Source of the DNA: a virus
IMG/VR virus record: IMGVR_UViG_3300025769_000604
Location: 1 to 28,746 of that record
Reading direction: 5' to 3' (one strand)
Length of the DNA: 28,746 nt
The notes beneath the pieces were generated by a model. It had not been told where the DNA came from and searched no databases. It saw only the letters and a program-made list of their open reading frames with translations. Below, piece after piece: positions 1 to 25,497 of the stretch. The position numbers and the translations under genes are program-made. Position 1 is the first letter of the stretch; each line of letters opens with the position of its first letter.

Positions 1-153
1 CCCACACTTGCCAGCTTCTGCCCTAACAGTCTCAATAACTTCTTCAAGACTGGCATAGTTTGATTTGAAGAATGGATTTTTTGCAGTCTTCTTAGCTGCT
101 GCTCCAGTGTTGTGAAACTGGATGAGTGCTTTGGTTATGTTCTTTAGTTCCAT
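1..153 (-). CDS. erf: ERF-family single-strand annealing protein, N-terminal fragment
   Basis: Partial gene; only the first 51 residues are in the window and the reading frame stays open to base 1. The protein begins MELKNITKALIQFHN and contains NPFFKSNYASLEEVIE (residues 26-41), the signature of the ERF superfamily, which normally has a NPFFKSKYAxL block near the N-terminus. ERF proteins anneal complementary single strands during phage recombination and genome circularisation. The start ATG has an AAGGAGAAC Shine-Dalgarno that overlaps the end of the upstream exonuclease gene; the stop of that gene and this ATG are one base apart (TAAAATG). Exonuclease followed directly by annealing protein is the classic two-component recombination pair (compare lambda exo/bet). 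The family call is firm for a fragment; the C-terminal region cannot be judged. Confidence 0.88.
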   Translation of the reverse strand, partial: MELKNITKALIQFHNTGAAAKKTAKNPFFKSNYASLEEVIETVRAEAGKCG

Positions 154-154
154 T

Positions 155-976
155 TTAGTTCTCCTTGACTGTGATGCGTAATGATCCGCGCTTATCGCGT
201 TTGATGGCTAGAAGATCACAGTATACTTCTCGCTCATCGTCACCAACCATAGCCTTGAGGTCAGACTTGGCTGACTCAAATAGCTTTGCTGATTTCTCTT
301 GTTCGATGTAGTCATGGCATCGGCTGATAAATTCGTTGTCGGCTGATGCATCTCGTTTGACTAGGCCATCGACCTTGATCTTATCTATAGATACAGGTGG
401 CACTTCGTTGTCACCGAAAGGGCGGGTGTCCTCAGTGACATGCCTCCAGAACTCGGTGATGTGTACCTTCATCTTGTTGATGTAGTCCCAATCTTTCTGT
501 ACATATACAGCAGCCCACTTGCGGTTGCCAAAGATTACAGATAGATAGCAGCCCTTGGCTTGATGTAGCCACATGTAGAACTGCATCTGTGGCATGTACA
601 TACTCAAACAGTTTTCCATATTGTTTGTTTCGTATGTATGTTTGCACTCAATGATCTCGTCAGTAAATTTTCTGTCCATCATAATGTGACCATCGACTTG
701 ACCCTTAAGAGGCACACCTTCCCAGTTCATCTCTGCTGTAAGGCCATGACCTTCGCCTTTGTGCATGACATGCTGTACTGTTTCAGTGTCAGTGAACATC
801 TGTTTATCAAACCAACGCTTGTTAAAGTGTTCAGTCTCTGAGCCTAGTTGTACTGCTAAATTATCTGAAAGATCATCAGGCTGTTTCTTGCCTGTCTTCT
901 CTTCCCACAAGGCAACCCAATCGCCTCGCATAATGCGGTTCATATCTGAGCCGCCTAGAAATCCTAGTCTGTTCAT
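155..976 (-). CDS. YqaJ/lambda-Exo-like PD-(D/E)XK exonuclease
   Basis: 273 aa. The N-terminus has a GGSD block (residues 8-11) followed by RIM, and a TE-x-x-N motif near residues 48-51, as in YqaJ-type viral recombinases. The nuclease core shows GQVDG (D95) and IIECKH (E110, K112), which together fit the D...ExK catalytic triad, followed by PQMQFYMW (about 129-136), a glutamine-rich helix also typical of the family. The protein would resect double-stranded ends to make single strands for the ERF protein encoded next to it. The ATG at 976 has the operon-type site AAAGGAGAACTACT, and a good sigma70-like promoter (997-1025) lies just upstream, so exo and erf may have their own start of transcription. 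The length matches the family. Confidence 0.87.
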   Translation of the reverse strand: MNRLGFLGGSDMNRIMRGDWVALWEEKTGKKQPDDLSDNLAVQLGSETEHFNKRWFDKQMFTDTETVQHVMHKGEGHGLTAEMNWEGVPLKGQVDGHIMMDRKFTDEIIECKHTYETNNMENCLSMYMPQMQFYMWLHQAKGCYLSVIFGNRKWAAVYVQKDWDYINKMKVHITEFWRHVTEDTRPFGDNEVPPVSIDKIKVDGLVKRDASADNEFISRCHDYIEQEKSAKLFESAKSDLKAMVGDDEREVYCDLLAIKRDKRGSLRITVKEN

Positions 977-996
977 AGTAGTTCTCCTTTTGATTT

Positions 997-1025
997 ATTA
1001 TACTGCAACTATGCAGTTAGATCAA
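997..1025 (-). promoter_or_regulatory. Candidate sigma70 promoter for exonuclease/ERF
   Basis: On the minus strand: -35 TTGATC (1025-1020), 17-bp spacer, perfect -10 TATAAT (1002-997). Predicted start of transcription is near 990, giving a leader of about 15 bases that contains the AAAGGAGAAC ribosome site. It overlaps the end of the upstream gene (stop at 1009). Promoter activity is inferred from consensus match only. Confidence 0.6.
1003..1016. promoter_or_regulatory. Candidate operator, CTGCA-N4-TGCAG dyad
   Basis: CTGCA ACTA TGCAG, extended by one base each side to a perfect 6+4+6 dyad (ACTGCA/TGCAGT, 1002-1017). It fills the spacer of the promoter at 997-1025, so a bound protein would block RNA polymerase. 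Related YTGCA-N4-TGCAR sites lie at 2951-2964 and 5470-5483, each also within or next to a candidate promoter. Confidence 0.5.
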
Positions 1026-1635
1026 GCTTCTTTTGTTGCAGTGATGAGAGCATCAGCTCTCTACGTCTGAGTCTCCACTTGATATGCTTGTGAAACTCTG
1101 AGTATGCGGGCCAGAAAGTGGTAGTCTCGGACACCTGCTTGATTGCGTACTTAACTATGTCGGCTGGATAGACTGACAGTTCATTAGCTATAGCTTGTAT
1201 TCGCATTGCATGATCGTCTGATGACTCACCTGCTGGCTTCACCACCAGCGCAGCCAGCAGCGTGAGGTCATCGACTAACATTTCTTTAGGCATGGGAACC
1301 ATAGCTTGCATAACTGTAGCTATACATTTGTTTACATCATCGACCGATGTTGATTCTATTCTGTAGCCACTGACAATAATATCTACGCCATCATCCTTGA
1401 AGCTACTGCGACTAATCTCTACTACCTTGCAGCCTGTTGTGCATTCTAGCGAAGTGAGAAGCAGACTGTCGACTCTGGCTGGATTGTTTACCTGTAGCAT
1501 TCGATCCAGACCTGCCTGTATTTGATCGCCACTCAATATGATTTGAACACCAGTATCTGTAGGCTCTGTCGAAGGACGCAAATTTTTTGCCTGTTGCTTG
1601 ATGGTAGTTAACGAACTTATCTGCTTGAGCGACAT
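1009..1635 (-). CDS. Unknown replication-module protein
   Basis: 208 aa, not assigned to a named family. The C-terminal half (about residues 98-200) is helical and has the pattern LAALVVKP...IQAIANELSVYPADIVKYAIKQ, then a WPAYSEFHKHIK segment. I associate ELxxYPADVVxxA and WWPTxxEL patterns with phage proteins encoded beside replication initiators; a helicase-loader-like role is a guess. The ATG at 1635 has AAGGAGG ten bases upstream. This start overlaps the preceding gene (ending at 1412) by 224 bases in another frame. The alternative in-frame ATGs (residues 46 and 110) lack such a site, and the last one would cut into the conserved part, so the long overlap seems real. Confidence 0.7.
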   Translation of the reverse strand: MSLKQISSLTTIKQQAKNLRPSTEPTDTGVQIILSGDQIQAGLDRMLQVNNPARVDSLLLTSLECTTGCKVVEISRSSFKDDGVDIIVSGYRIESTSVDDVNKCIATVMQAMVPMPKEMLVDDLTLLAALVVKPAGESSDDHAMRIQAIANELSVYPADIVKYAIKQVSETTTFWPAYSEFHKHIKWRLRRRELMLSSLQQKKLDLTA

Positions 1636-4414: not shown

Positions 4415-5284
4415 TTAGACTGAATGCCAGTTGTGTTTCTTGAACACCTTGGCTAGCTGATTGTTACGCAAGCGTTGCGTGTTAGCTGGTGAGTTAGACT
4501 CGTCTGTGTGACTAGCCCAATAGGTGCAAGCATTGTACAATGCCCACTTATTGCTGCCTAGTTTAGCTTTGTCTGCATACCAGTAGCCCATCAGTCGCTC
4601 AAGCTGACGCTCATTCCATTTGAATGTGCTAGTTTTGTTAGGTGTGCGACACATGCTGTGTTTGAAGAACATCTCAGCCATCTCATCATTGACATGAGTT
4701 AACATCCAAGATTGATACACATCTTTTGTATTTAGAAATGCCTCAAGCCCTGCTTGTATCTTGGCTGCGCTGCCTTCTACATTGACATTGGTTGTATGCT
4801 TTGCCCATGTATTAGCTACAGTATCAGCATGTGTGCATCCATTGAGACACCACAAACGCAAGCCGAATGCTGATTGTTGGAATGCCCAGCTACTATCGTA
4901 TGAGTTAAAGAACTGGACGCGGAACCTTACATAGTCACCGACTGCTGGCTCCATTACCAAATCACTGAAGTCAATAGTGCCTCGTAGCTTGGCACCGTTA
5001 TCAAAGATTTCAATTTTTGTATCGTAATCTTTAGATACATTTGATTGACTGACAGCATCCATAACTGAGTTGACTACATCATCATGCTTGATTGCTTTGT
5101 ACTTAGAGCCATGAACACCAAGCACTTCATTGGTATCAGTGCGTACAATACAACGAGCCATTGACTCTGGTACATTGTGATAGGTTGGGTCATTGTCTTT
5201 GATAGCTGCCAAGTTCCAAGTCTCTACTGGGAACGACCAGCAATCTTCTACTAGGCTATTGCCTATAACTGTTACTCCATCCAT
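4415..5284 (-). CDS. DUF932 (phage/plasmid-like) protein
   Basis: 289 aa. The family features are clear: an N-terminal segment with YHNVPESMARCIVRTDTNEV then LGVHGSKYKAIKH (the usual vG.Yk.iqn.d site), FDNGAKLRGTIDF in the middle, and FQQSAFGLRLWCLNGC, the conserved R.vC.NG block. The C-terminal third is helical, ending ANTQRLRNNQLAKVF. DUF932 proteins occur in many phages and plasmids; their biochemical role is not established. The start has AAGGAGAACTAACAATG. It is the second gene after the candidate early promoter and so is probably expressed strongly and early. Length is at the shorter end of the family. Confidence 0.85.
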   Translation of the reverse strand: MDGVTVIGNSLVEDCWSFPVETWNLAAIKDNDPTYHNVPESMARCIVRTDTNEVLGVHGSKYKAIKHDDVVNSVMDAVSQSNVSKDYDTKIEIFDNGAKLRGTIDFSDLVMEPAVGDYVRFRVQFFNSYDSSWAFQQSAFGLRLWCLNGCTHADTVANTWAKHTTNVNVEGSAAKIQAGLEAFLNTKDVYQSWMLTHVNDEMAEMFFKHSMCRTPNKTSTFKWNERQLERLMGYWYADKAKLGSNKWALYNACTYWASHTDESNSPANTQRLRNNQLAKVFKKHNWHSV

Positions 5285-15884: not shown

Positions 15885-16475
15885 GCAGTTACCAGTACAA
15901 CAGCTAACTCACCAATAGATATTTGCGCTAGAGCGTTAATTCTTATTGGCGCAGATCCAATTACATCATTTGATGAGAATACAACTGAAGCACTTGTGGC
16001 TTCAAATATGTATGAAGATGTTGCTAGAGCTTCATTAGTAAATTCACGCTGGAGATTTGCGACAAATCAAGGGTTGTTAAATTTATTATCTGCCAAACCT
16101 ACAGGTAGATACGACAGGGCGTATCAACTTCCGGCAGATTTATTAATGCTACATGCTGTTACAGTAGGTGATTTGCCTATTGAGTATCAAATATATGGTA
16201 ATAAAGTTTTTGCTGATACAGACCCCGCCGACATTGTTGTGGCTGATTACACATTTAGAGCTAATGAGCAAGACTGGCCTTCATACTTTACAATAGCTGT
16301 TGAATATTCTTTGTCTGTAGTTTTTGCAACGTCTATTGCAAGAGACGCAACGCTTGCTGCTCTTATGAAAGAGCAGGCTAGAGAGTCAATGGCAAAGGCT
16401 AGAAGTCTTGACTCACAGCAGCAGACTTCAAGAAAACTTACTACTTCGAGGTTTATTGCTGAAAGGCGTAGCTAA
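15882..16475 (+). CDS. Tail tubular protein A, T7 gp11-like
   Basis: 197 aa (T7 gp11 has 196). SPIDICARALILIGADPITS, then EALVASNMYEDVARASLVNS with RWRFATNQ is the gatekeeper/adaptor family start; the middle has RYDRAYQLPADLLMLHAVTV and the end helical AALMKEQARESMAKARS. Twelve copies join portal and tail nozzle. The ATG depends on the unusual hairpin-spaced ribosome site just upstream. Its stop is joined to the next gene by TAATG. Confidence 0.92.
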   Translation: MAVTSTTANSPIDICARALILIGADPITSFDENTTEALVASNMYEDVARASLVNSRWRFATNQGLLNLLSAKPTGRYDRAYQLPADLLMLHAVTVGDLPIEYQIYGNKVFADTDPADIVVADYTFRANEQDWPSYFTIAVEYSLSVVFATSIARDATLAALMKEQARESMAKARSLDSQQQTSRKLTTSRFIAERRS

Positions 16476-18739
16476 TGCCTAGAATATTGGTTCCGCTTAC
16501 AAACTTTCAATTTGGTGAAGTAAGTCCGTCTTTGATTTCAAGGACAGATACAAAGGTGTATCCAAACGCAGCTAAAACTATTAATAATTTTTTGTTGCGT
16601 AATGAAGGCGGCTTAGTAAAACGCTTTGGCAGCAAAAGAATATATGAGTACGAAACAACTTACGACTCAAGTAAGTCGCAGCAAATAAGACTTGTTCCAT
16701 TTATATTCTCTGATGACGAGCGTTATATTGTTTCGCTTGAGGACGCAAAACTTAGGGTATTTCAAATTGACCCCACAACCGGAAATGTAGCTTTTTGTTT
16801 TGGCACATCAGTAGATTCTAATAATAGTGCTTTACCGTTTACTGATGACATTCTTCCTGAGCTAACATTCGCTCAATCTGGTGATGTAATGTTTATTGCA
16901 CATCAAACTTTTATGACGCGTAAACTTGTACGCACAAGTTTAACTACTTTTGTTATAGAAACATTTTCTTTTGAAGATAGCGCAGATGGATACAGAAACA
17001 ATCAACCATATTATTCTTTTCAACCGCTTGGCGTTACGCTAGACCCATCGGCCTCAAGTGGCAATGGAGTTACAATCGTAACAAGCGCAGCTTATTTTGA
17101 CACTAGCGGTACTGCAAGCGGTGGTGTTTATCCAGATTCAAAACACGTTGGCGTTACATTACGATATCATGATAACGAAATATATATAACTTCTGTTCAG
17201 TCATCAGTGCAGGCAATTGGGAACATACAAAATTCATTAACTGTTCGCCTTGATGTAGATGCGCTGGAAACTACAGATGGCCTTGCCGACATACAAGTTA
17301 CCTTTGCTTTACATGGATTAAAAGTTGGGGATGTTTTTGTAGTAGCTTCAGCAGGTGCTGTTGGTGGAATAGCAAGAACTAATATAAACGGTACGCGAAC
17401 TGTTGCAGAAGTAATTGATGAAAATGTTTTTGTATTTGCAGCGGGTGCAAATGCAAATGAATCTGTTGTTGGGGGTGGCTCTCCCAAGATAACCACGCAT
17501 GCACCTACAACCGCTTGGTCTGAGCAATCATACTCTTCATTGCGCGGCTACCCAGCAGCGGTAGCGTTCCATGAAAATAGGCTGTGGTTTGGGGGTACTA
17601 TTGCTCAACCAGATGGTTTATGGGGCAGCAAAAGTTCTGAATATTTTAATTTTGACGTTGGTGATGGACAGGATAATGATGCAATAGATCTTACTTTAAG
17701 CATTGGTGAGATAAACACTATAAGGCACATTATATCTAATCGTGATTTACAAGTTCTCACATCTACATCTGAGTTTTATATTCCAGCATTTTCAGAAAAA
17801 CCTATTACACCTACTAACGCTCAAATAAAAAGACAAACTCCATACGGTTCAGAGTTTATGAGACCGTATTCTTTTGATGGTGCAACGATATATGTGCAGA
17901 GACATGGGTCTGTAATTAGAGAATTTGTTTATGACGATAGTGAGGGTGCTTATGTATCTAATTCTATAAGCCAGTTATCACCTCACTTAATAAAAAATGT
18001 AATACAAACAAGTGTTTTAAGAGGTGCTATCAATAGACCGGAATCTTATGCGTTTTTTATAAATACTGATGGCACTATAGCAGTGTTTACTTCAAACAGA
18101 AGTGAGCAACGTGCTGGATGGAGCCAGTTTACAACATCAGGTAAGTTCCATTCTATCTGCACAATTGATGAAAGAGTGTTTGTTCTTGGCCTTTATGATG
18201 TTGGAGATGGAACACAAAAATTTATTTTTTCAGAGTTTGATGTTTCTATGAACTTAGACTTCTCAAATAACTTTACAGGAACAGCAGGTGTCTTTGATGT
18301 TTCTTCACACTTTGAAAATGGCGCGGTTGTACAAGTTATTAATGGCACAGATTACATTGGTGAATTTACTGTAGCGGGTGGTAATGTTGATGTGTCTTCT
18401 GTTGCTTTAATAACAAGCGCAGAGATTGGTTATAAATTTGATGTTGTTGCAGAAACATTACCAATAGACGCACAGGTTGCTGGTGGGCCATTAACTGGTC
18501 AACCAAGATCTGTAAACAGAGTTGTGCTAGATTTGCTTAACACCTTATCTATAAGTGTAAACGATAAAGAACTTATTATACGCACTGTCCTTGATGACCT
18601 TAGTCTTGACAGGGTTGCGGTTGAGGGCAAGAAAGAGTTTAGGTTACTTGGTTACAGCAAAGACCCAACAATTAAAATTACACAAAAAGCACCATTGTCC
18701 TTACAGGTAAATGGTTTGATAGCAGAGGTGACATTCTAA
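16475..18739 (+). CDS. Tail tubular protein B (nozzle), T7 gp12-like
   Basis: 754 aa (T7 gp12 has 794). The N-terminus NFQFGEVSPSLISRTDTKVY, then NNFLLRNEGGLVKRFGSKRI is diagnostic. The central part has GYPAAVAFHENRLWFGGTIA and WGSKSSEYFNF, as in other nozzle proteins, with beta-propeller-like strands; the C-terminal domain contains RSVNRVVLDLLNTLSISVND. It forms the short tail tube and holds the fibers. Starts and ends with TAATG, so expression is coupled to both neighbours. Confidence 0.93.
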   Translation: MPRILVPLTNFQFGEVSPSLISRTDTKVYPNAAKTINNFLLRNEGGLVKRFGSKRIYEYETTYDSSKSQQIRLVPFIFSDDERYIVSLEDAKLRVFQIDPTTGNVAFCFGTSVDSNNSALPFTDDILPELTFAQSGDVMFIAHQTFMTRKLVRTSLTTFVIETFSFEDSADGYRNNQPYYSFQPLGVTLDPSASSGNGVTIVTSAAYFDTSGTASGGVYPDSKHVGVTLRYHDNEIYITSVQSSVQAIGNIQNSLTVRLDVDALETTDGLADIQVTFALHGLKVGDVFVVASAGAVGGIARTNINGTRTVAEVIDENVFVFAAGANANESVVGGGSPKITTHAPTTAWSEQSYSSLRGYPAAVAFHENRLWFGGTIAQPDGLWGSKSSEYFNFDVGDGQDNDAIDLTLSIGEINTIRHIISNRDLQVLTSTSEFYIPAFSEKPITPTNAQIKRQTPYGSEFMRPYSFDGATIYVQRHGSVIREFVYDDSEGAYVSNSISQLSPHLIKNVIQTSVLRGAINRPESYAFFINTDGTIAVFTSNRSEQRAGWSQFTTSGKFHSICTIDERVFVLGLYDVGDGTQKFIFSEFDVSMNLDFSNNFTGTAGVFDVSSHFENGAVVQVINGTDYIGEFTVAGGNVDVSSVALITSAEIGYKFDVVAETLPIDAQVAGGPLTGQPRSVNRVVLDLLNTLSISVNDKELIIRTVLDDLSLDRVAVEGKKEFRLLGYSKDPTIKITQKAPLSLQVNGLIAEVTF

Positions 18740-19182
18740 TGTTTCAATTCATAATGGCAGGTGCTTCAATTCTAGGTGCATACGCGACAATCCAAGCTGG
18801 AAAAAGCGCACAAGCTGCTGCAAATGCAGAAGCTGCACAGTTAGAGCAAGAAAAAAAACAAAACGAAGTTATTGCAGGTCAAAGACATACTGATCGTTTA
18901 GATCAGTATGACGCTGCAAGAGCAAACAATCTTGCTTGGTTTGCTTTTTCTGGCAGAGATGTTTCTGATAGGTCGGTAAAAGCATTTATGGATAAACAGC
19001 GCGAGGTTGCCTACACAGACGTTGCTAGATCCGATGCTCAAGGATATGCAGATAGCTCACAACTAGCTATGCAAGCTCAGGTAACAAGGATGCGAGGGGC
19101 AAACGCAAGGCGTTCTGCAAACATACAAGCACTATCAACACTATCATCAGGATTGTATCAATATAATACAGTAAAGAGTTAG
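18739..19182 (+). CDS. Internal virion protein, T7 gp14-like
   Basis: 147 aa. Short hydrophobic N-terminus (FIMAGASILGAYATIQAG) followed by an Ala/Gln-rich helix (AQAAANAEAAQLEQEKKQNE) and SGRDVSDRSVKAFMDKQREV, matching the podovirus internal virion protein B pattern; shorter than T7 gp14 (196 aa). gp14 forms the pore in the outer membrane during DNA ejection. It follows the nozzle gene and precedes gp15- and gp16-like genes, the T7 order. Confidence 0.85.
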   Translation: MFQFIMAGASILGAYATIQAGKSAQAAANAEAAQLEQEKKQNEVIAGQRHTDRLDQYDAARANNLAWFAFSGRDVSDRSVKAFMDKQREVAYTDVARSDAQGYADSSQLAMQAQVTRMRGANARRSANIQALSTLSSGLYQYNTVKS

Positions 19183-19186
19183 CAGT

Positions 19187-21499
19187 ATGGCAGTAATTAG
19201 AGAAAAGCAACAATTCCGCAATCAACGCATTGGTGTTGTGAAGATGGATACTGGTGCTGAAAATTATTATAACACTGTAGCTAATGCAGCCGACAATTTA
19301 ACACAGATTGCTTTTAAAGAAGCTGGTAGGCAAGCTCAAGAAAAAGGTAAGGAAACTGCTGAAGCTGTTAAAACGCAGGCTTTGCGTACTATAAATCCAG
19401 AAACTGGAAAGCCAGAAGCTTACAATGTACCAGAAAAATTTGGCACAGTAGCGCAGGCATCATACGAAGAAGTTCTTGATCGCAGATTTATTAATGACGT
19501 TGATCAACAAATTAAAGACCGTGGGCGTGATTTATTTTTAAAATATCAAAACGATCCTCATGGTGTTGAAAAATATAGTCAATCAATGGAAGACTATGTT
19601 GCTCAGATGATTGAGCCTAAAAACAACGCAGGCATACTAAACGATAGATTTAAAAACATAATTAAAGATACAGGTGCAGCATTCATTGCCAGCACTAAGT
19701 TCAACCTTATGAGCAAGAGAGCAGCTATTGTTGCCGATCAGTTAAGGGCAGGGCTTGATCAAGACGCAATTAATGCAAGTGAAGAAATTGTATCGGTAAT
19801 CCAAGCCGGAGACCCTTTAGATTATGAGGGCGGAGAAGCTACTAGAACAAGTCAGCTTATTGCTGAATCAGCTATTGCTGAAATGGATGCAGGTTTAGAA
19901 TCTGGAATACTTACAGTTCCACAGCATAAAGCTAATGTTCAATCTATTTTAAAAGCACTACCAGAAGGAATGCTTACAAATCGGATGAATTACAATTCTA
20001 GTTATGTTGATGATAATAATGTAACAAAACAAATGAATTCTGATGTTGGCATTCTTATAGAAAGCGCAATTGATACAGGCATTATTCCGGATAATTTACC
20101 TAAGTCCCTTGTGCCTCAAGTGCAAGCAATACTCGATTCAGATGGGTACAAAGAAAACAAAAAGTCTATACAGCAAAAGGTAGGAGACTTGCGCCTAGGT
20201 CTTGAACGGCGTGAGGCAGAAGTTAAGAAAAAAACACAAACGCAAATAAATAGAGACAACGTAGTCGATAAAAATTTTGTTGTTGATTCAACGGACGCGG
20301 GAATAAAAGATGCTGTTGACTTTCATATAGCTGGGCAAATTGATGGAATAGACCCAGAAAACCCTAACATGGTTCCTTATTTTTCTAGCGAAGAATCAAC
20401 TAAAGAAGATGCTGTTTGGAAATTTTTTCTTGCTAAAAAAAATGTAATATCAACAGGTATGGAGTTGAGTTTAAAAAGACTTGCTAGACTTGAGCCAATG
20501 GAATCTCAAGAAATGAGAACACTTCTTAGCCATTACAACTATTTATCTAAAGTAAATATTGGAGGCTCTATTGTTAATAAAACATTAGATTCAACTTTAT
20601 CAAAAGAAGATAACGCATTTTTACGCACTTTAAATGCTGTAACCATAGTTGGTGGTGCTGAAGACATTGTTTCTTTTGCAGCTAAATTAAAAGAAAATAT
20701 GCAAAACACACCTCTTGTAAACAACACAATTAAATCTGTGTTTGATGCAGACGATAATGTTTCGGCTAAAGATGTTTTAACTTCTTATTTGCAAGAAGAA
20801 TTTGGAACTGATTATGAAATGATTGAAACTGTAAGACCATATGCAAAACATTTAATTATGTCTGGCGTTAAAAAAGACGATTTAGATAATCATATAAATG
20901 AAATGTTTGAAACTTCATACATTGAAACAGATGGTGTTGTTGTTGATAGATACAATTCAAACAGCACTAAGTCTATGTTTGCGATAAAAAGAATATTGCC
21001 GGATAACGCAGAAAGACAAACTTTCTACAAAAACGCTACCGAGTTAGTGCAACAATTAAGCGGTGAAAATTTTGTCTTAGATGATAGGTATTTTGGAATT
21101 GATAGAAACAGACAAGTTAAACTTGTTCCAACAACAGCAAGTGCATTCCAACCTGATTCATTGCCTTTAGAATACAAGTTAGAAGATGATTTGTCAGAAG
21201 AGGGGTTTGTTACAAGAAACTCAGAACTAAAAACATTTCAATATATAGCTTATTATGTTGCTGATGATGGTCAACTTAGAATGATACCTAGTAAAACAGG
21301 TGGCCCAATACTTATTGGAACAGAGTTAGCTTATGATGATATTTTCAATATAAGAAAAGAAAGAGAACAAGACGAAATATATGATTCTAATGCAAAAACA
21401 TTAAGAGCAATAGAAATAAACAGAGTAACCAAGGCTAGAATTAACAGAAATATTGAAGCTTTAAGTAATATAAAATCGCCATTTAAGGGTAAAAATTAA
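19187..21499 (+). CDS. Internal virion protein, T7 gp15-like
   Basis: 770 aa (T7 gp15 has 747). Assigned from size, position and mostly helical character rather than clear motifs. The N-terminal quarter (AENYYNTVANAADNLTQIAF, KGKETAEAVKTQALRTINPE, and VLDRRFINDVDQQIKDRGRD) is the part most like other podovirus ejection proteins. No catalytic motif is seen. In T7, gp15 forms the periplasmic tube with gp16. Starts 4 bases after the gp14-like stop and ends in TAATG with the gp16-like gene, giving tight coupling. Its third position is rich in A and T. Confidence 0.8.
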   Translation: MAVIREKQQFRNQRIGVVKMDTGAENYYNTVANAADNLTQIAFKEAGRQAQEKGKETAEAVKTQALRTINPETGKPEAYNVPEKFGTVAQASYEEVLDRRFINDVDQQIKDRGRDLFLKYQNDPHGVEKYSQSMEDYVAQMIEPKNNAGILNDRFKNIIKDTGAAFIASTKFNLMSKRAAIVADQLRAGLDQDAINASEEIVSVIQAGDPLDYEGGEATRTSQLIAESAIAEMDAGLESGILTVPQHKANVQSILKALPEGMLTNRMNYNSSYVDDNNVTKQMNSDVGILIESAIDTGIIPDNLPKSLVPQVQAILDSDGYKENKKSIQQKVGDLRLGLERREAEVKKKTQTQINRDNVVDKNFVVDSTDAGIKDAVDFHIAGQIDGIDPENPNMVPYFSSEESTKEDAVWKFFLAKKNVISTGMELSLKRLARLEPMESQEMRTLLSHYNYLSKVNIGGSIVNKTLDSTLSKEDNAFLRTLNAVTIVGGAEDIVSFAAKLKENMQNTPLVNNTIKSVFDADDNVSAKDVLTSYLQEEFGTDYEMIETVRPYAKHLIMSGVKKDDLDNHINEMFETSYIETDGVVVDRYNSNSTKSMFAIKRILPDNAERQTFYKNATELVQQLSGENFVLDDRYFGIDRNRQVKLVPTTASAFQPDSLPLEYKLEDDLSEEGFVTRNSELKTFQYIAYYVADDGQLRMIPSKTGGPILIGTELAYDDIFNIRKEREQDEIYDSNAKTLRAIEINRVTKARINRNIEALSNIKSPFKGKN

Positions 21500-24400
21500 T
21501 GCCGATTAATCCTTGGGAAAATACACAGCCGACTTTTATTGAGTCAGATGTAGCTGATAGGCAGCCCTTACAACGTGTAGAACAACCTGAGTTTTTTGCT
21601 GACACTATTCCGGCAGCACTTGGCTATCAATACGTTCCTATATTTAATGTTGTTAAAAACGCTGTTAATCATGGAACAGAGATTCAACAAGGGTACAACG
21701 CTCTTGATGATATGGGTGGTTATGAAGAATATAAACATCATCTTATGAACGCTGTAAGCGAAGATCACATGCAAGATCTTAAGATGCAATTAAACGAAAA
21801 CAAAAAACGCAGACAAGTTTTAGCTGATTCATCATTTTGGGCAAATCTTGGTGCTGGTGTATTTGATCCAATTAACTTAGTAGCCTTACCATTTGGCGGT
21901 GTAGCGGCTACTGCTGGCAGACAGTTTTTGCGTACTGGTGTTGGCGTAGGTGTAACACAAGCTGGCTTAGAGGCCGCTCGTGCGCCGTTTGATCCGCTTT
22001 CAACGAAGACTGAAATAGCAATGAACATAGGTTCAGCTTTTGTTATTGGCGGTGCTATTGGAACTCTTGCGTCTATACCATCTAGACGCAGAGGTGCTGT
22101 AATAAAAAAGACAGAGGAAGATGTTTTTGAGTTTACAGAAGCTGTAAAAGATTTTACGGCTGAAGATGTTGCTTTGATTGGCACACGAGAGCAAAGGCCA
22201 CTTGGCAAAAAAACTGTAAATGAAATTAATGACCTTGAGGTTAAAACTCCAAAGACTATTGAGGGTCTTCAAAAAGCATTAGAAGACAACAGGCGCAAAC
22301 TCAATGCTAAAACAATAACTCTTAAAGAACATAATGCCGCAGAAGCTGCAATATCGAATGACATTGCCGCTGCCAAAACAAGATTGGGTGCAGCAAAGCA
22401 AGAACGGTTGTTACGCCGCGCAGAAGAAATACAAGGTTTAGAAAAACCAGAACCGTTTAATATGCCAAGCAATGTGTTTACTGATTCATGGCTCTATACA
22501 GGCGTATCAACAGGCATGAAGCGTATTTTGCGTAGTAAGGTGCCTCAAAGCGTAAAGCTTGCTACAATCAAGTTAGCAGGCGATAGCGGCATATTGTTAA
22601 AATTAAATCAATACGGCATGGCTACACCTAAGTCTGTATATCAATATGCACAAACTAGAAATGGTGAGTGGGTAAAAGCATACACTGATATGATGCGCCA
22701 ATTTGGCGAGCATACTAAACGAGGTGGTTCTGTAGTAGTAGCTGATGTAAACCTATCAAACTTTGATGGTTCATTTTCTGCATATTTAAAAGAAGTAAAT
22801 CGCAAATATATTAATGGCGATAAGCCAACAACCACTGCGGAAAAAGAATCTATTGAAGCATTAAAAGCTTTCTATAAAACATGGGAAGATAGGCTTAAAG
22901 AAGTTGGTATGCTTGGTGATGTTAAGCGTTTGCAGCGTAGTATTGTTGAAAAAGAACAACAGCTTATGGAAATACAAGACAAAATTGATGAGCTTGAATC
23001 TGCGTTTAATAACAAACAAAAACAAGGCGGAACGCCTAAACAGTTTGATTACTTGCAAAAATTAAAAGAACGCTATGATCGCAAAGAACAATCACTTCTT
23101 AATGATGAAACAAGTTTACAGTTTGCAAAAGACACAACAGTCACACCATCTGGTGAAGAATTTATGTTTCCTAGATATTGGAACAGAGATGCTATTAGGG
23201 AAAACAGGCAGCAGTTTGAAAAAATATTAGCAGATCATTTTGAAGAACATAATGTAATTTATGTAGCTAATGAATCTCAAGAGCGTCCTCTTTCTAATTT
23301 TATTGATATGTCTAATGAGCAGCTTGTATCTAAGCTAGGGCAAAATTTTAATGTTAGAAAAGTTGTAGATGGTTTTGAAGCTGTTCAAAAAATTAAAGAG
23401 CATCATCCTGATGGTGCGCTTGGCATGCATATGTATTTTGATAATGAGGCTGGCATTGTCTACATTGACAAGGCTGGTGCGTTTCGTAAGTACGGACGCT
23501 TTAAAGAAGCTTTGCTAGATAAAAAAGCTGCTTACGCAAAGAACGACACCTTTGGTGCTAAAAGTAATTTTAGCAATGAAGTGTATCATCACAATGCATT
23601 TATGTTGAATAATTCAGATGCATTTCGCTCATATAGAGACTATGCAGATTTTGTTTTGTTGCATGAGTTTCAACACGGAACTTTAAAACGTAAGTACAAA
23701 GAAGATAACGTAAGCTATGAGATGCGTGTAAATGAAGCTGCACTTGATTTTATGAAACAGCAGCATTTGCAAATGCGTAAAACATCACCACGTTTTGTTA
23801 GACAGGAGCTAGACAACAGCAGAGCCGCTGTTGAATTGCGAGCAAAAGAAGCTGTAGATAATATTTTAGATATGGCTAACACGGCAGATGATATGAATGC
23901 TTTCTATGGTGCTGGCAAATCTAAACACACACGCCACAGAACATTAGATATACCAAATGCAAAAGTATTAGATTACATACAGAATGATCCGCTGGCTGTT
24001 ATGAGAGCGTACACACAAAGAGTTGCCCCGCAGTATGAGTTTGCAAAAATGTTTGGCGGCAAGTCTATAGAAGATGTTCTTGATGATGTAGAAGCAGACA
24101 TGATTGTTAATGGCAATACTGTTAATGAAATAAACGCAACACGCAAAGACATATTGCATTTACACGACCGTGTAGTTGGCACAGTATTGCGTGAACCGCA
24201 TTCATGGGATCAACGTACAGCTACAGTCCTCAGAGACTTTGCACAGCTTAACTATCTTGGTTCTGCTGGGTTTTCAACATTGCCTGATTTTGCAAAGATT
24301 ATGATGGAGCATGAACTTGGTGATGTGTTCAAGTCTTTATTTAGCACAATCTCAGACTCAAGAATACGCCAAACATCAAAGGAAGCTGGGCTAAGTGGCG

Positions 24401-25497
24401 AAGCTATTGAGGTTCTGTCAGGCGATGTTCACATGCGTCTTATAGACGATGTAACTAACAATCCGTTTAATGAAGGCACTTACGACAAGTACATGAGCAA
24501 ACTTAAGTGGGGCTTTTACCAAGCAAACTTACTTGCTCCTATGACTAACACTATGAAGAAGTTAGACGCTATTGTTAGAGGACATTCACTAATACAAATG
24601 TCTATGCGCCTTGCTGGTAGCGGTAAGAAAGCTACTAAGTTCGAGGTAGAGTATCTTGCTCGTTATGGCATTGATCAAGCAAAAGCTAAACGTATTCGTG
24701 AACTTGTTGATAACGGCACTATTGAACAAACAGATAAAGGTTTGTATTTACCGAACACAGAAAAATGGCCTAGACAGTACGAAGATTTAAAACTAGAGTT
24801 TCGTAGCTCGCTTAACAGCGGGATTATGAATACAATTTTAATGGGTACACCAGCAGATAAACCAAACATTGTTGATGGCGTTGTTTATGTCCCATACCGC
24901 ATAGCTAAACAATTTGGCGGCAAAGAAGACCCTAAATACCGTGGCTACACACGAATAGAAAACGGATTGCTTGGTCTTCCATTCCAGTTCTACTCATACA
25001 CATTAGCAGCGGTGAACAAAATTACAGCTTCATATGCTACAGGTCAGGCAAGAAACAGAGCAGTAGCATTAGCGGCATCTATGGGTTTAGCTTACATGGG
25101 CCTTGAGCTAAAGAACCCTGATTTTGTTATGGATGAAATGCCGCTATCAGACAAGATTGCTCGTTCTTTTGACATGTCTGGTATAGCTGCTTTGTATTCA
25201 GATAGTCTTTACACAGCAATGAATACTTCAATGGCTCTTGGTGGGCCTGATATTTCTATGGGTTTGCTGCAACCAAAATTTCCACAAGAAGAAAACATTG
25301 CTGATGCTTTTGTGGGTCTAGCAGGTGCTGGCCCAAGTTATGGTTTAGATGTTGGCAGAGGTGTCAAAGAATTTATTGACGGTAATTATGGTGAAGGCAG
25401 CAAGAAGTTAATTAGAGCATTGCCAACTGCAAGACTTTGGATGTGGAAAGATTTTATGAATGAAGCTAGTAATGCTTTTACAGCAAAACGTTACTAA
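21499..25497 (+). CDS. Internal virion protein, T7 gp16-like, with HEFQH metallopeptidase-like domain
   Basis: 1332 aa (T7 gp16 has 1318). Residues 110-200 have hydrophobic segments (FWANLGAGVFDPINLVALPF, TGVGVGVTQAGLEAARAPFD, IGSAFVIGGAIGTLASIPSR) as in gp16-type ejection proteins. Residues about 475-537 form a coiled coil (RLQRSIVEKEQQLMEIQDKI). Near 650-760 lies a zincin-like domain: HEFQH at 722-726 and NEAALDF with E746, which fits an HExxH...E gluzincin site (compare ImmA-like HExxH...E). The rest resembles the long C-terminal gp16 region. T7 gp16 has an N-terminal lytic transglycosylase; none is visible here, so the zincin may do the wall-opening. The catalytic role is inferred. Confidence 0.85.
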   Translation: MPINPWENTQPTFIESDVADRQPLQRVEQPEFFADTIPAALGYQYVPIFNVVKNAVNHGTEIQQGYNALDDMGGYEEYKHHLMNAVSEDHMQDLKMQLNENKKRRQVLADSSFWANLGAGVFDPINLVALPFGGVAATAGRQFLRTGVGVGVTQAGLEAARAPFDPLSTKTEIAMNIGSAFVIGGAIGTLASIPSRRRGAVIKKTEEDVFEFTEAVKDFTAEDVALIGTREQRPLGKKTVNEINDLEVKTPKTIEGLQKALEDNRRKLNAKTITLKEHNAAEAAISNDIAAAKTRLGAAKQERLLRRAEEIQGLEKPEPFNMPSNVFTDSWLYTGVSTGMKRILRSKVPQSVKLATIKLAGDSGILLKLNQYGMATPKSVYQYAQTRNGEWVKAYTDMMRQFGEHTKRGGSVVVADVNLSNFDGSFSAYLKEVNRKYINGDKPTTTAEKESIEALKAFYKTWEDRLKEVGMLGDVKRLQRSIVEKEQQLMEIQDKIDELESAFNNKQKQGGTPKQFDYLQKLKERYDRKEQSLLNDETSLQFAKDTTVTPSGEEFMFPRYWNRDAIRENRQQFEKILADHFEEHNVIYVANESQERPLSNFIDMSNEQLVSKLGQNFNVRKVVDGFEAVQKIKEHHPDGALGMHMYFDNEAGIVYIDKAGAFRKYGRFKEALLDKKAAYAKNDTFGAKSNFSNEVYHHNAFMLNNSDAFRSYRDYADFVLLHEFQHGTLKRKYKEDNVSYEMRVNEAALDFMKQQHLQMRKTSPRFVRQELDNSRAAVELRAKEAVDNILDMANTADDMNAFYGAGKSKHTRHRTLDIPNAKVLDYIQNDPLAVMRAYTQRVAPQYEFAKMFGGKSIEDVLDDVEADMIVNGNTVNEINATRKDILHLHDRVVGTVLREPHSWDQRTATVLRDFAQLNYLGSAGFSTLPDFAKIMMEHELGDVFKSLFSTISDSRIRQTSKEAGLSGEAIEVLSGDVHMRLIDDVTNNPFNEGTYDKYMSKLKWGFYQANLLAPMTNTMKKLDAIVRGHSLIQMSMRLAGSGKKATKFEVEYLARYGIDQAKAKRIRELVDNGTIEQTDKGLYLPNTEKWPRQYEDLKLEFRSSLNSGIMNTILMGTPADKPNIVDGVVYVPYRIAKQFGGKEDPKYRGYTRIENGLLGLPFQFYSYTLAAVNKITASYATGQARNRAVALAASMGLAYMGLELKNPDFVMDEMPLSDKIARSFDMSGIAALYSDSLYTAMNTSMALGGPDISMGLLQPKFPQEENIADAFVGLAGAGPSYGLDVGRGVKEFIDGNYGEGSKKLIRALPTARLWMWKDFMNEASNAFTAKRY

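What the first reader, a model, noticed from the sequence alone, without database searches (positions are those of the whole stretch)
21499..25497. Zinc-protease motif inside the gp16-like ejection protein
Seen: HEFQH (residues 722-726) and E746 in a region of about 110 residues between the coiled coil and the long C-terminal part; no lytic transglycosylase motif in this protein or in the gp15-like one. Known: T7 gp16 carries a transglycosylase to open the cell wall. Inference: a metallopeptidase has replaced it, cutting peptide cross-links or a host protein during DNA entry, or processing virion proteins.
Basis: partly seen in the sequence, partly recalled or inferred. Interest (0 to 1): 0.62.

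Follow-up and report, generated by a model that had tools for sequence, protein, structure and literature searches.

The report
Roaming zinc-protease cassette in phage ejection protein
A protein that this marine phage is predicted to push into its host with its DNA carries a plug-in zinc-protease domain that related phages keep, lose, swap or place elsewhere on the inward-facing part of the same protein, so it looks like injected cargo aimed at something inside the cell rather than a tool for opening the cell wall.

Summary
In detail: HEFQH lies at residues 722-726 of a 1332-aa T7 gp16-type ejection protein (window 23662-23676). It is the active-site helix of a real zincin domain of about 180 residues (590-767). 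Two predicted models (pLDDT 86) match zincins in nearly every leading row. H722, E723, H726 and E741 are invariant across diverse relatives.

The protein aligns with T7 gp16 from T7 residue ~245 on (E 3.7e-20): the transglycosylase part is missing, and the zincin is a separate insertion at T7 ~706/707, in the part modelled in the host cytoplasm. Relatives carry homologous zincins at three sites of the scaffold (A, B, C), all in that part; others have none. In one clade the zincin coexists with an endolysin-like domain at the N-terminus. Two scaffolds with 9/1160 residue differences differ at 47/194 in the zincin. So it is a mobile, purifying-selected cargo cassette.

Best reading: an effector protease delivered with the DNA, cutting a host (perhaps DNA-bound) protein; self-processing is the main rival. 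The substrate is unknown and activity untested. The only cultured carrier found has lost both zinc histidines.

The parts
21499..25497 (+). gp16-type internal virion (ejection) protein, 1332 aa, carrying the zincin
   Evidence: phrog_342 E 6e-54; profile-profile with T7-family gp16 Prob 99.3, E 3.7e-20
21847..22083 (+). hydrophobic region, residues 117-195, aligned with T7 gp16 TMH-I
   Evidence: hydropathy, hhalign to T7 gp16, T7 topology from PMC8954989
22933..23142 (+). coiled-coil-like charged segment, residues 479-548, absent from T7 gp16
   Evidence: insertion between T7 654 and 655 in the alignment; sequence reading
23266..23799 (+). zincin cassette, residues 590-767 (insertion site A)
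   Evidence: profile match E 4e-60; insertion 588/780 between T7 706 and 707; AF2 model pLDDT 86
23662..23676 (+). HEFQH, residues 722-726: two predicted zinc ligands and catalytic Glu723
   Evidence: invariant in A1, A2 and A9
23719..23721 (+).
   Evidence: invariant column E154 of A1 and A2, on the helix after the HExxH helix
19187..21499 (+). gp15-like protein by position, 770 aa, no enzymatic domain found
   Evidence: no Pfam or PHROG match
18739..19182 (+). gp14-like internal virion protein, 147 aa
   Evidence: phrog_418 internal virion protein E 1e-9
16475..18739 (+). tail nozzle protein; supports T7-like gene order portal-capsid-tail-ejection proteins
   Evidence: PF25675 4.7e-11, phrog_376 4e-113

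Best explanation
The cassette is an injected effector protease. It is packaged as part of the gp16-type ejection protein, passes with the first DNA into the host, is placed on the cytoplasmic face of the DNA-translocating gp16 assembly, and there cuts a host protein, most plausibly a DNA-bound or defence/regulatory protein met at the entry point. Shown here: it is a zincin-fold domain (by prediction) with an invariant HExxH + Glu site under purifying selection; it is an insertion in gp16-C separate from the missing transglycosylase part; across relatives it is gained or lost, relocated among three sites of gp16-C, and exchanged as a cassette. Inferred from the T7 model: virion packaging, ejection and cytoplasmic exposure. 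Inferred only: proteolytic activity and the class of target.
For: Invariant catalytic residues with motif-blind control. Zincin-like models; nearly all leading VIA rows of the minimal module are zincin-type metalloenzymes, led by YbeY (Z 7.0) and IrrE/PprI (Z 6.4-6.5, rmsd 2.1-2.2 A over 78), with PrpR, ArdC, Wss1, SPRTN and CapP. Alignment to T7 gp16 places site A at T7 706/707, B at ~1063-1071, C at ~445-523, all within 411-1118, modelled in the cytoplasm in PMC8954989. Scaffold tree with lack of the module nested inside the site A and site B clades and one relocation. Cassette exchange: L045/L047 aa differences 47/194 in the module vs 9/1160 elsewhere, p 3e-33, four-fold sites p 5e-7; L040/L041 87/196 vs 94/1354. 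dN/dS 0.05-0.13 in the module. A further accessory domain in the same region of L103: DUF7831, E 2e-18. Precedent: metallopeptidase domains of polyvalent proteins (PMC5512222).
Against: No substrate, no activity, no proof of packaging in this phage. The cytoplasmic placement rests on a T7 model whose gp16-C part is low resolution. VIA Z values stay under 8 and Foldseek gave no significant PDB match. The cultured relative Hodr (KKEVYRG instead of HExxH) and L101/L135 (HEAEN) have broken active sites, so proteolysis is not needed in all carriers. In the plasmid antirestriction protein ArdC the protease site was dispensable for the function tested (PMC7213743).
Confidence: 0.5

Rival explanations
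1. Self-processing: the zincin cuts the ejection protein itself, in the capsid or after injection, to free or reshape parts of gp16.
For: Proposed for metallopeptidase domains of polyvalent proteins; phage P1 DdrB is processed before packaging (PMC5512222). In relatives with extra domains (L038-type, L103) cutting could release them.
Against: Relatives without the module keep the same scaffold with clean junctions; the module changes place among three sites, so the geometry to any fixed cut site changes; in the window there is no second enzymatic cargo to release; N4 virion RNA polymerase with such a domain is packaged uncut (PMC5512222).
Confidence: 0.22
2. Non-proteolytic or decaying role: the fold serves as a binding or spacer domain and catalysis is dispensable.
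For: Dead sites in Hodr (H to K, H to R) and L101/L135 (HEAEN); dispensable site in ArdC.
Against: All 78 domains found motif-blind keep HExxH although distant copies share only about 20-35% identity; low dN/dS.
Confidence: 0.13
3. One reading: the zincin took over the transglycosylase's job by cutting peptide cross-links of the cell wall.
For: The window's gp16 lacks the T7 N-terminal transglycosylase part and no other wall enzyme was found in the window proteins scanned.
Against: Different place, downstream of TMH-I; coexists with an N-terminal endolysin-like domain in L038-L043, L051, L090; many relatives have neither.
Confidence: 0.07
4. HExxH marks another metalloenzyme of zincin-like fold (YbeY-like nuclease or an HExxH hydroxylase), not a peptidase.
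For: YbeY is in the best structural rows (Z 7.0); HExxH in radical-SAM-linked enzymes is noted for N4 in PMC12633501.
Against: YbeY uses an HxxxHxxxxxH site (own knowledge) with no catalytic Glu of this type; here HExxH plus a downstream invariant Glu is the gluzincin pattern described in PMC7213743.
Confidence: 0.08

Closest known systems
T7 gp16 (phrog_342 internal virion protein with endolysin domain)
   Same: Same position after gp14/gp15-like genes; collinear homology window 56-1198 to T7 245-1147.
   Different: No counterpart of T7 1-244 (transglycosylase and tape); ~190-residue insertion at 706/707 with the zincin; extra coiled coil at 654/655.
Metallopeptidase (MPTase) domains of polyvalent proteins, Iyer et al. 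2017 (PMC5512222); Pfam PF18818
   Same: Zincin fold, HExxH then Glu helix, embedded in large proteins delivered with DNA, appears at varying positions, combined with lysozyme and other domains.
   Different: Does not reach PF18818 (best member 15.4 of 27.5 bits; window no match). T7-type gp16 as carrier is not mentioned in that paper (terms gp16, T7-like, ejection absent).
Coliphage N4 virion RNA polymerase C1 domain (HExxH)
   Same: HExxH domain in a giant ejected podovirus protein (PMC12633501).
   Different: Profile-profile match covers only 10 columns of the motif (Prob 6.7); no RNA polymerase here.
IrrE/PprI (M78) and R388 ArdC metalloprotease domains
   Same: Predicted fold: IrrE/PprI Z 6.4-6.5, 78 residues at 2.1-2.2 A; ArdC Z 5.2, 82 residues at 2.7 A. 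Both act in DNA contexts.
   Different: No PF06114 match in the window; HExxH and Glu separated by only 14 residues; different host protein.
Pelagibacter phage EXVC031P Hodr gp16-like protein (WDQ27578.1)
   Same: Closest cultured relative of the scaffold; zincin profile match at site C (E 8e-9).
   Different: Both zinc histidines lost (KKEVYRG); site C not A.

Membership tests
T7 gp16-type ejection protein | Sequence homology to the gp16 core | tested here: met
   hhalign Prob 99.3, E 3.7e-20 over ~800 columns; phrog_342 6e-54
T7 gp16-type ejection protein | Gene order nozzle - gp14 - gp15 - gp16 in late operon | tested here: met
   the gp15-like gene is assigned by position only
T7 gp16-type ejection protein | N-terminal lytic transglycosylase domain | tested here: not met
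   Alignment begins at T7 ~245; no Pfam hit. The review says this domain is phage-specific, so it does not exclude kinship (PMC8954989)
T7 gp16-type ejection protein | Membrane regions TMH-I and TMH-II | tested here: inconclusive
   TMH-I region aligned and hydrophobic; no strong C-terminal segment in the window by hydropathy
Zincin metallopeptidase superfamily | HExxH helix | tested here: met
Zincin metallopeptidase superfamily | Third ligand on the following helix | tested here: met
   Invariant E741 on the predicted glutamate helix; geometry itself not measured
Zincin metallopeptidase superfamily | Zincin core fold | tested here: met
   Predicted models; nearly all leading VIA rows of the minimal module are known or putative zincin-type enzymes, Z up to 7.0. 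Foldseek itself weak
Zincin metallopeptidase superfamily | Metal binding and peptidase activity | not testable with these tools
   needs purified protein
PF18818 MPTase-PolyVal | Score above the Pfam gathering cut-off | tested here: not met
PF06114 Peptidase_M78 (IrrE/ImmA) | Score above the Pfam gathering cut-off | tested here: not met
Polyvalent proteins | Several unrelated effector domains in one injected polypeptide | tested here: inconclusive
   Window: one enzymatic domain on an ejection scaffold. Relatives: endolysin-like + zincin (L040), DUF7831 + zincin (L103)
N4 vRNAP C1 domain family | Sequence-profile similarity | tested here: not met
   Prob 6.7, motif only

The most novel reading that the evidence does not exclude
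T7-type ejection proteins work as a two-sided cargo rack: wall glycosidases plug in before the first membrane segment (periplasmic side) and exchangeable effector domains, chiefly this unnamed zincin family, plug into several loops of the cytoplasmic ring, giving many uncultured aquatic podoviruses an injected, readily swapped protease acting on the host at the moment of DNA entry.
Probability: 0.4. Interest if true: 0.78.

Novelty: new variant of a known kind. Interest (0 to 1): 0.6.

Why it matters
Injected virion enzymes are known (T4 Alt, N4 RNA polymerase, polyvalent proteins), but T7-type gp16 is usually treated as a DNA-translocation machine with one wall enzyme. Finding three insertion sites on its inward part, all used by the same protease family, makes the question of what gp16-C can carry directly testable in a very well studied model protein, and offers independent natural tests of the gp16 topology model. 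It also gives a compact, widespread, unclassified zincin family from aquatic phages with a defined active site and two natural inactive forms.

Tried and rejected
Pfam, NCBIfam, PDB-sequence and PADLOC scans gave no significant family for the domain. Sequence kinship with the N4 vRNAP domain was tested and not found. tblastn of the window's domain against cultured phages found none. The E746 assignment was rejected on conservation. Assembly chimera rejected: the same architecture occurs in contigs from many separate metagenomes. Possible nucleotide-binding hits (cpYpsA, phrog_289) in L103 are noted but cpYpsA is below its Pfam cut-off. One script read a multi-line FASTA wrongly and gave an empty table; repeated correctly. 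The first scaffold-tree run failed on a thread setting and was repeated. A paper on the Hodr phage was sought and not found in the library.
Full report
WHAT WAS CHECKED. HEFQH lies at residues 722-726 (23662-23676) and is its only HExxH; shuffles of the protein give such a motif in 3% of cases. The protein matches phrog_342, internal virion protein with endolysin domain (E 6e-54), and follows a nozzle protein, a gp14-like protein (phrog_418) and a 770-aa protein in the gp15 position. The window is a 28.7-kb virus record.

THE DOMAIN IS REAL. 57 relatives came from viral contigs. An alignment of 25 domains has seven invariant columns, among them H722, E723, H726, E741 and A748; with more distant copies the same residues stay invariant. 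Because these rows were partly picked by the motif, I repeated the search blind: a profile made only from the part upstream of the motif finds 78 domains and all have HExxH (these include overlapping loci of the same contigs, so they are not 78 independent sequences). AlphaFold2 gave pLDDT 86.2 for the window's domain and 85.9 for a minimal 160-aa relative. Z values below 8 are modest; the uniformity of the list is the argument. dN/dS of the domain in close pairs is 0.05-0.13, so it is under purifying selection.

WHERE IT SITS. A profile of 20 window-type gp16 proteins aligns with a T7-family gp16 profile at Prob 99.3, E 3.7e-20; window 56-1198 matches T7 245-1147. T7 residues 1-244 (transglycosylase and molecular tape) have no counterpart. 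The zincin is a 190-residue insertion between T7 706 and 707. In the published T7 model, residues 411-1118 (gp16-C) are placed in the host cytoplasm and 243-410 and 1119-1290 cross the inner membrane (PMC8954989). So the missing wall enzyme and the zincin are on opposite sides of the first membrane region. This is inference from a model of T7.

IT ROAMS. Homologous zincins occur at three places of the same scaffold: site A (between the middle and core-1 segments; window), site B (window ~1090/1100; T7 ~1063-1071) and site C (window ~232-345; T7 ~445-523); a further set has none, with clean junctions. All three sites are inside gp16-C. A 45-tip scaffold tree puts module-less proteins inside the site A clade (L020; L031/L036 beside L065-L068) and inside the site B clade (L027, L029), and a site A protein (L093) inside a site C group; the nodes that matter mostly have support of 99-100. 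I do not separate gains from losses. Cassette exchange is visible directly: L045 and L047 differ at 9 of 1160 residues outside the module but at 47 of 194 inside (p 3e-33; four-fold sites 21/52 vs 61/540, p 5e-7); L040 and L041 at 94/1354 outside and 87/196 inside.

NOT A SUBSTITUTE FOR THE WALL ENZYME. L038-L043, L051 and L090 carry an N-terminal domain similar to phrog_873 (endolysin; tested on L040, the others by similarity to it) and, at site B, the zincin; L044 has the N-terminal domain but is cut off before site B. L021 has an N-terminal Phage_lysozyme domain (PF00959, above cut-off) and no zincin, while L020, 95% identical over the shared 1236 residues, has neither. Many zincin-less relatives have no recognised wall enzyme in gp16 or in the gp15-like protein. 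Presence of the two kinds of domain is therefore not complementary, and glycosidases sit before TMH-I, zincins after it.

OTHER CARRIERS AND DEAD FORMS. The same zincin occurs in other large phage proteins, e.g. ~1250-aa proteins with a phrog_839 stretch (L095, L123 and others; L123 lies near connector and tail-fibre genes) and at the C-terminus of a 2778-aa ORF (L149-L151). In genome contigs only one locus was found (L154, a Rhodobiaceae MAG). The 2141-aa gp16-like protein of L103 carries DUF7831 in the same insertion region as the zincin, plus weaker nucleotide-binding matches. The cultured Pelagibacter phage Hodr has the domain at site C with both zinc histidines lost (KKEVYRG where relatives have RHExxHx), and L101/L135 have HEAEN.

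MECHANISM. Most likely (0.5) an effector protease delivered on the cytoplasmic face of the entry machine, acting on a host protein. Structural neighbours include proteases of DNA-bound proteins and repressors (IrrE, CapP, Wss1, SPRTN; own knowledge except where PMC7213743 states it) and the plasmid antirestriction protein ArdC; this suggests, but does not show, a DNA-bound target. Self-processing (0.22) is a proposal made for related domains in PMC5512222; the changing position and the module-less relatives weigh against a required cut in the scaffold. A non-catalytic role (0.13) is supported by the dead forms and by the dispensable site in ArdC. Wall cleavage (0.07) is least consistent with position.

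KNOWN OR NEW. The zincin is outside PF18818 and PF06114 cut-offs and not alignable with the N4 vRNAP domain beyond the motif. What it works like is known (metallopeptidase domains of polyvalent proteins). The T7-type gp16 as carrier with three exchangeable sites was not found in the papers searched; the library is partial. I therefore call it a new variant of a known kind.

Noticed in passing
L105:3612-7355 (Pelagibacter phage EXVC031P Hodr, WDQ27578.1), residues ~259-371: Zincin profile match with both zinc histidines lost (KKEVYRG in place of HExxH), an apparent natural pseudo-protease in the only cultured carrier found.
   Followed up: partly
L101:6822-11039 (same contig as L135): HEAEN instead of HExxH, followed by a YHGTS...-type stretch that by eye resembles an ADP-ribosyltransferase start; no Pfam match.
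   Followed up: partly
L103:4827-11249, residues ~603-871: DUF7831 (PF25176, E 2e-18) and weaker GTP-binding/cpYpsA-like matches inside a 2141-aa gp16-like protein, beside the zincin: further candidate injected domains.
   Followed up: partly
L021:6885-11663 versus L020:7953-11663: Two gp16 proteins 95% identical over 1236 residues, one with an added N-terminal Phage_lysozyme domain: a wall enzyme gained or lost as a plug-in.
   Followed up: yes
L045 and L047, module residues ~921-1122 of gp16: Nearly identical phage proteins with strongly diverged zincin cassettes, indicating recombinational exchange of the cassette.
   Followed up: yes
L036:4653-7922, L031:4601-7906 versus window 19187-21499: The protein in the gp15 position is 1090-1102 aa in zincin-less relatives but 770 aa in the window; no domain was recognised in the extra length.
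   Followed up: no
window 155-976 (-) and 4415-5284 (-): YqaJ/lambda-exonuclease-type recombinase (PF09588) and a TIGR03299-like protein on the opposite strand, a recombination module in the left arm.
   Followed up: no
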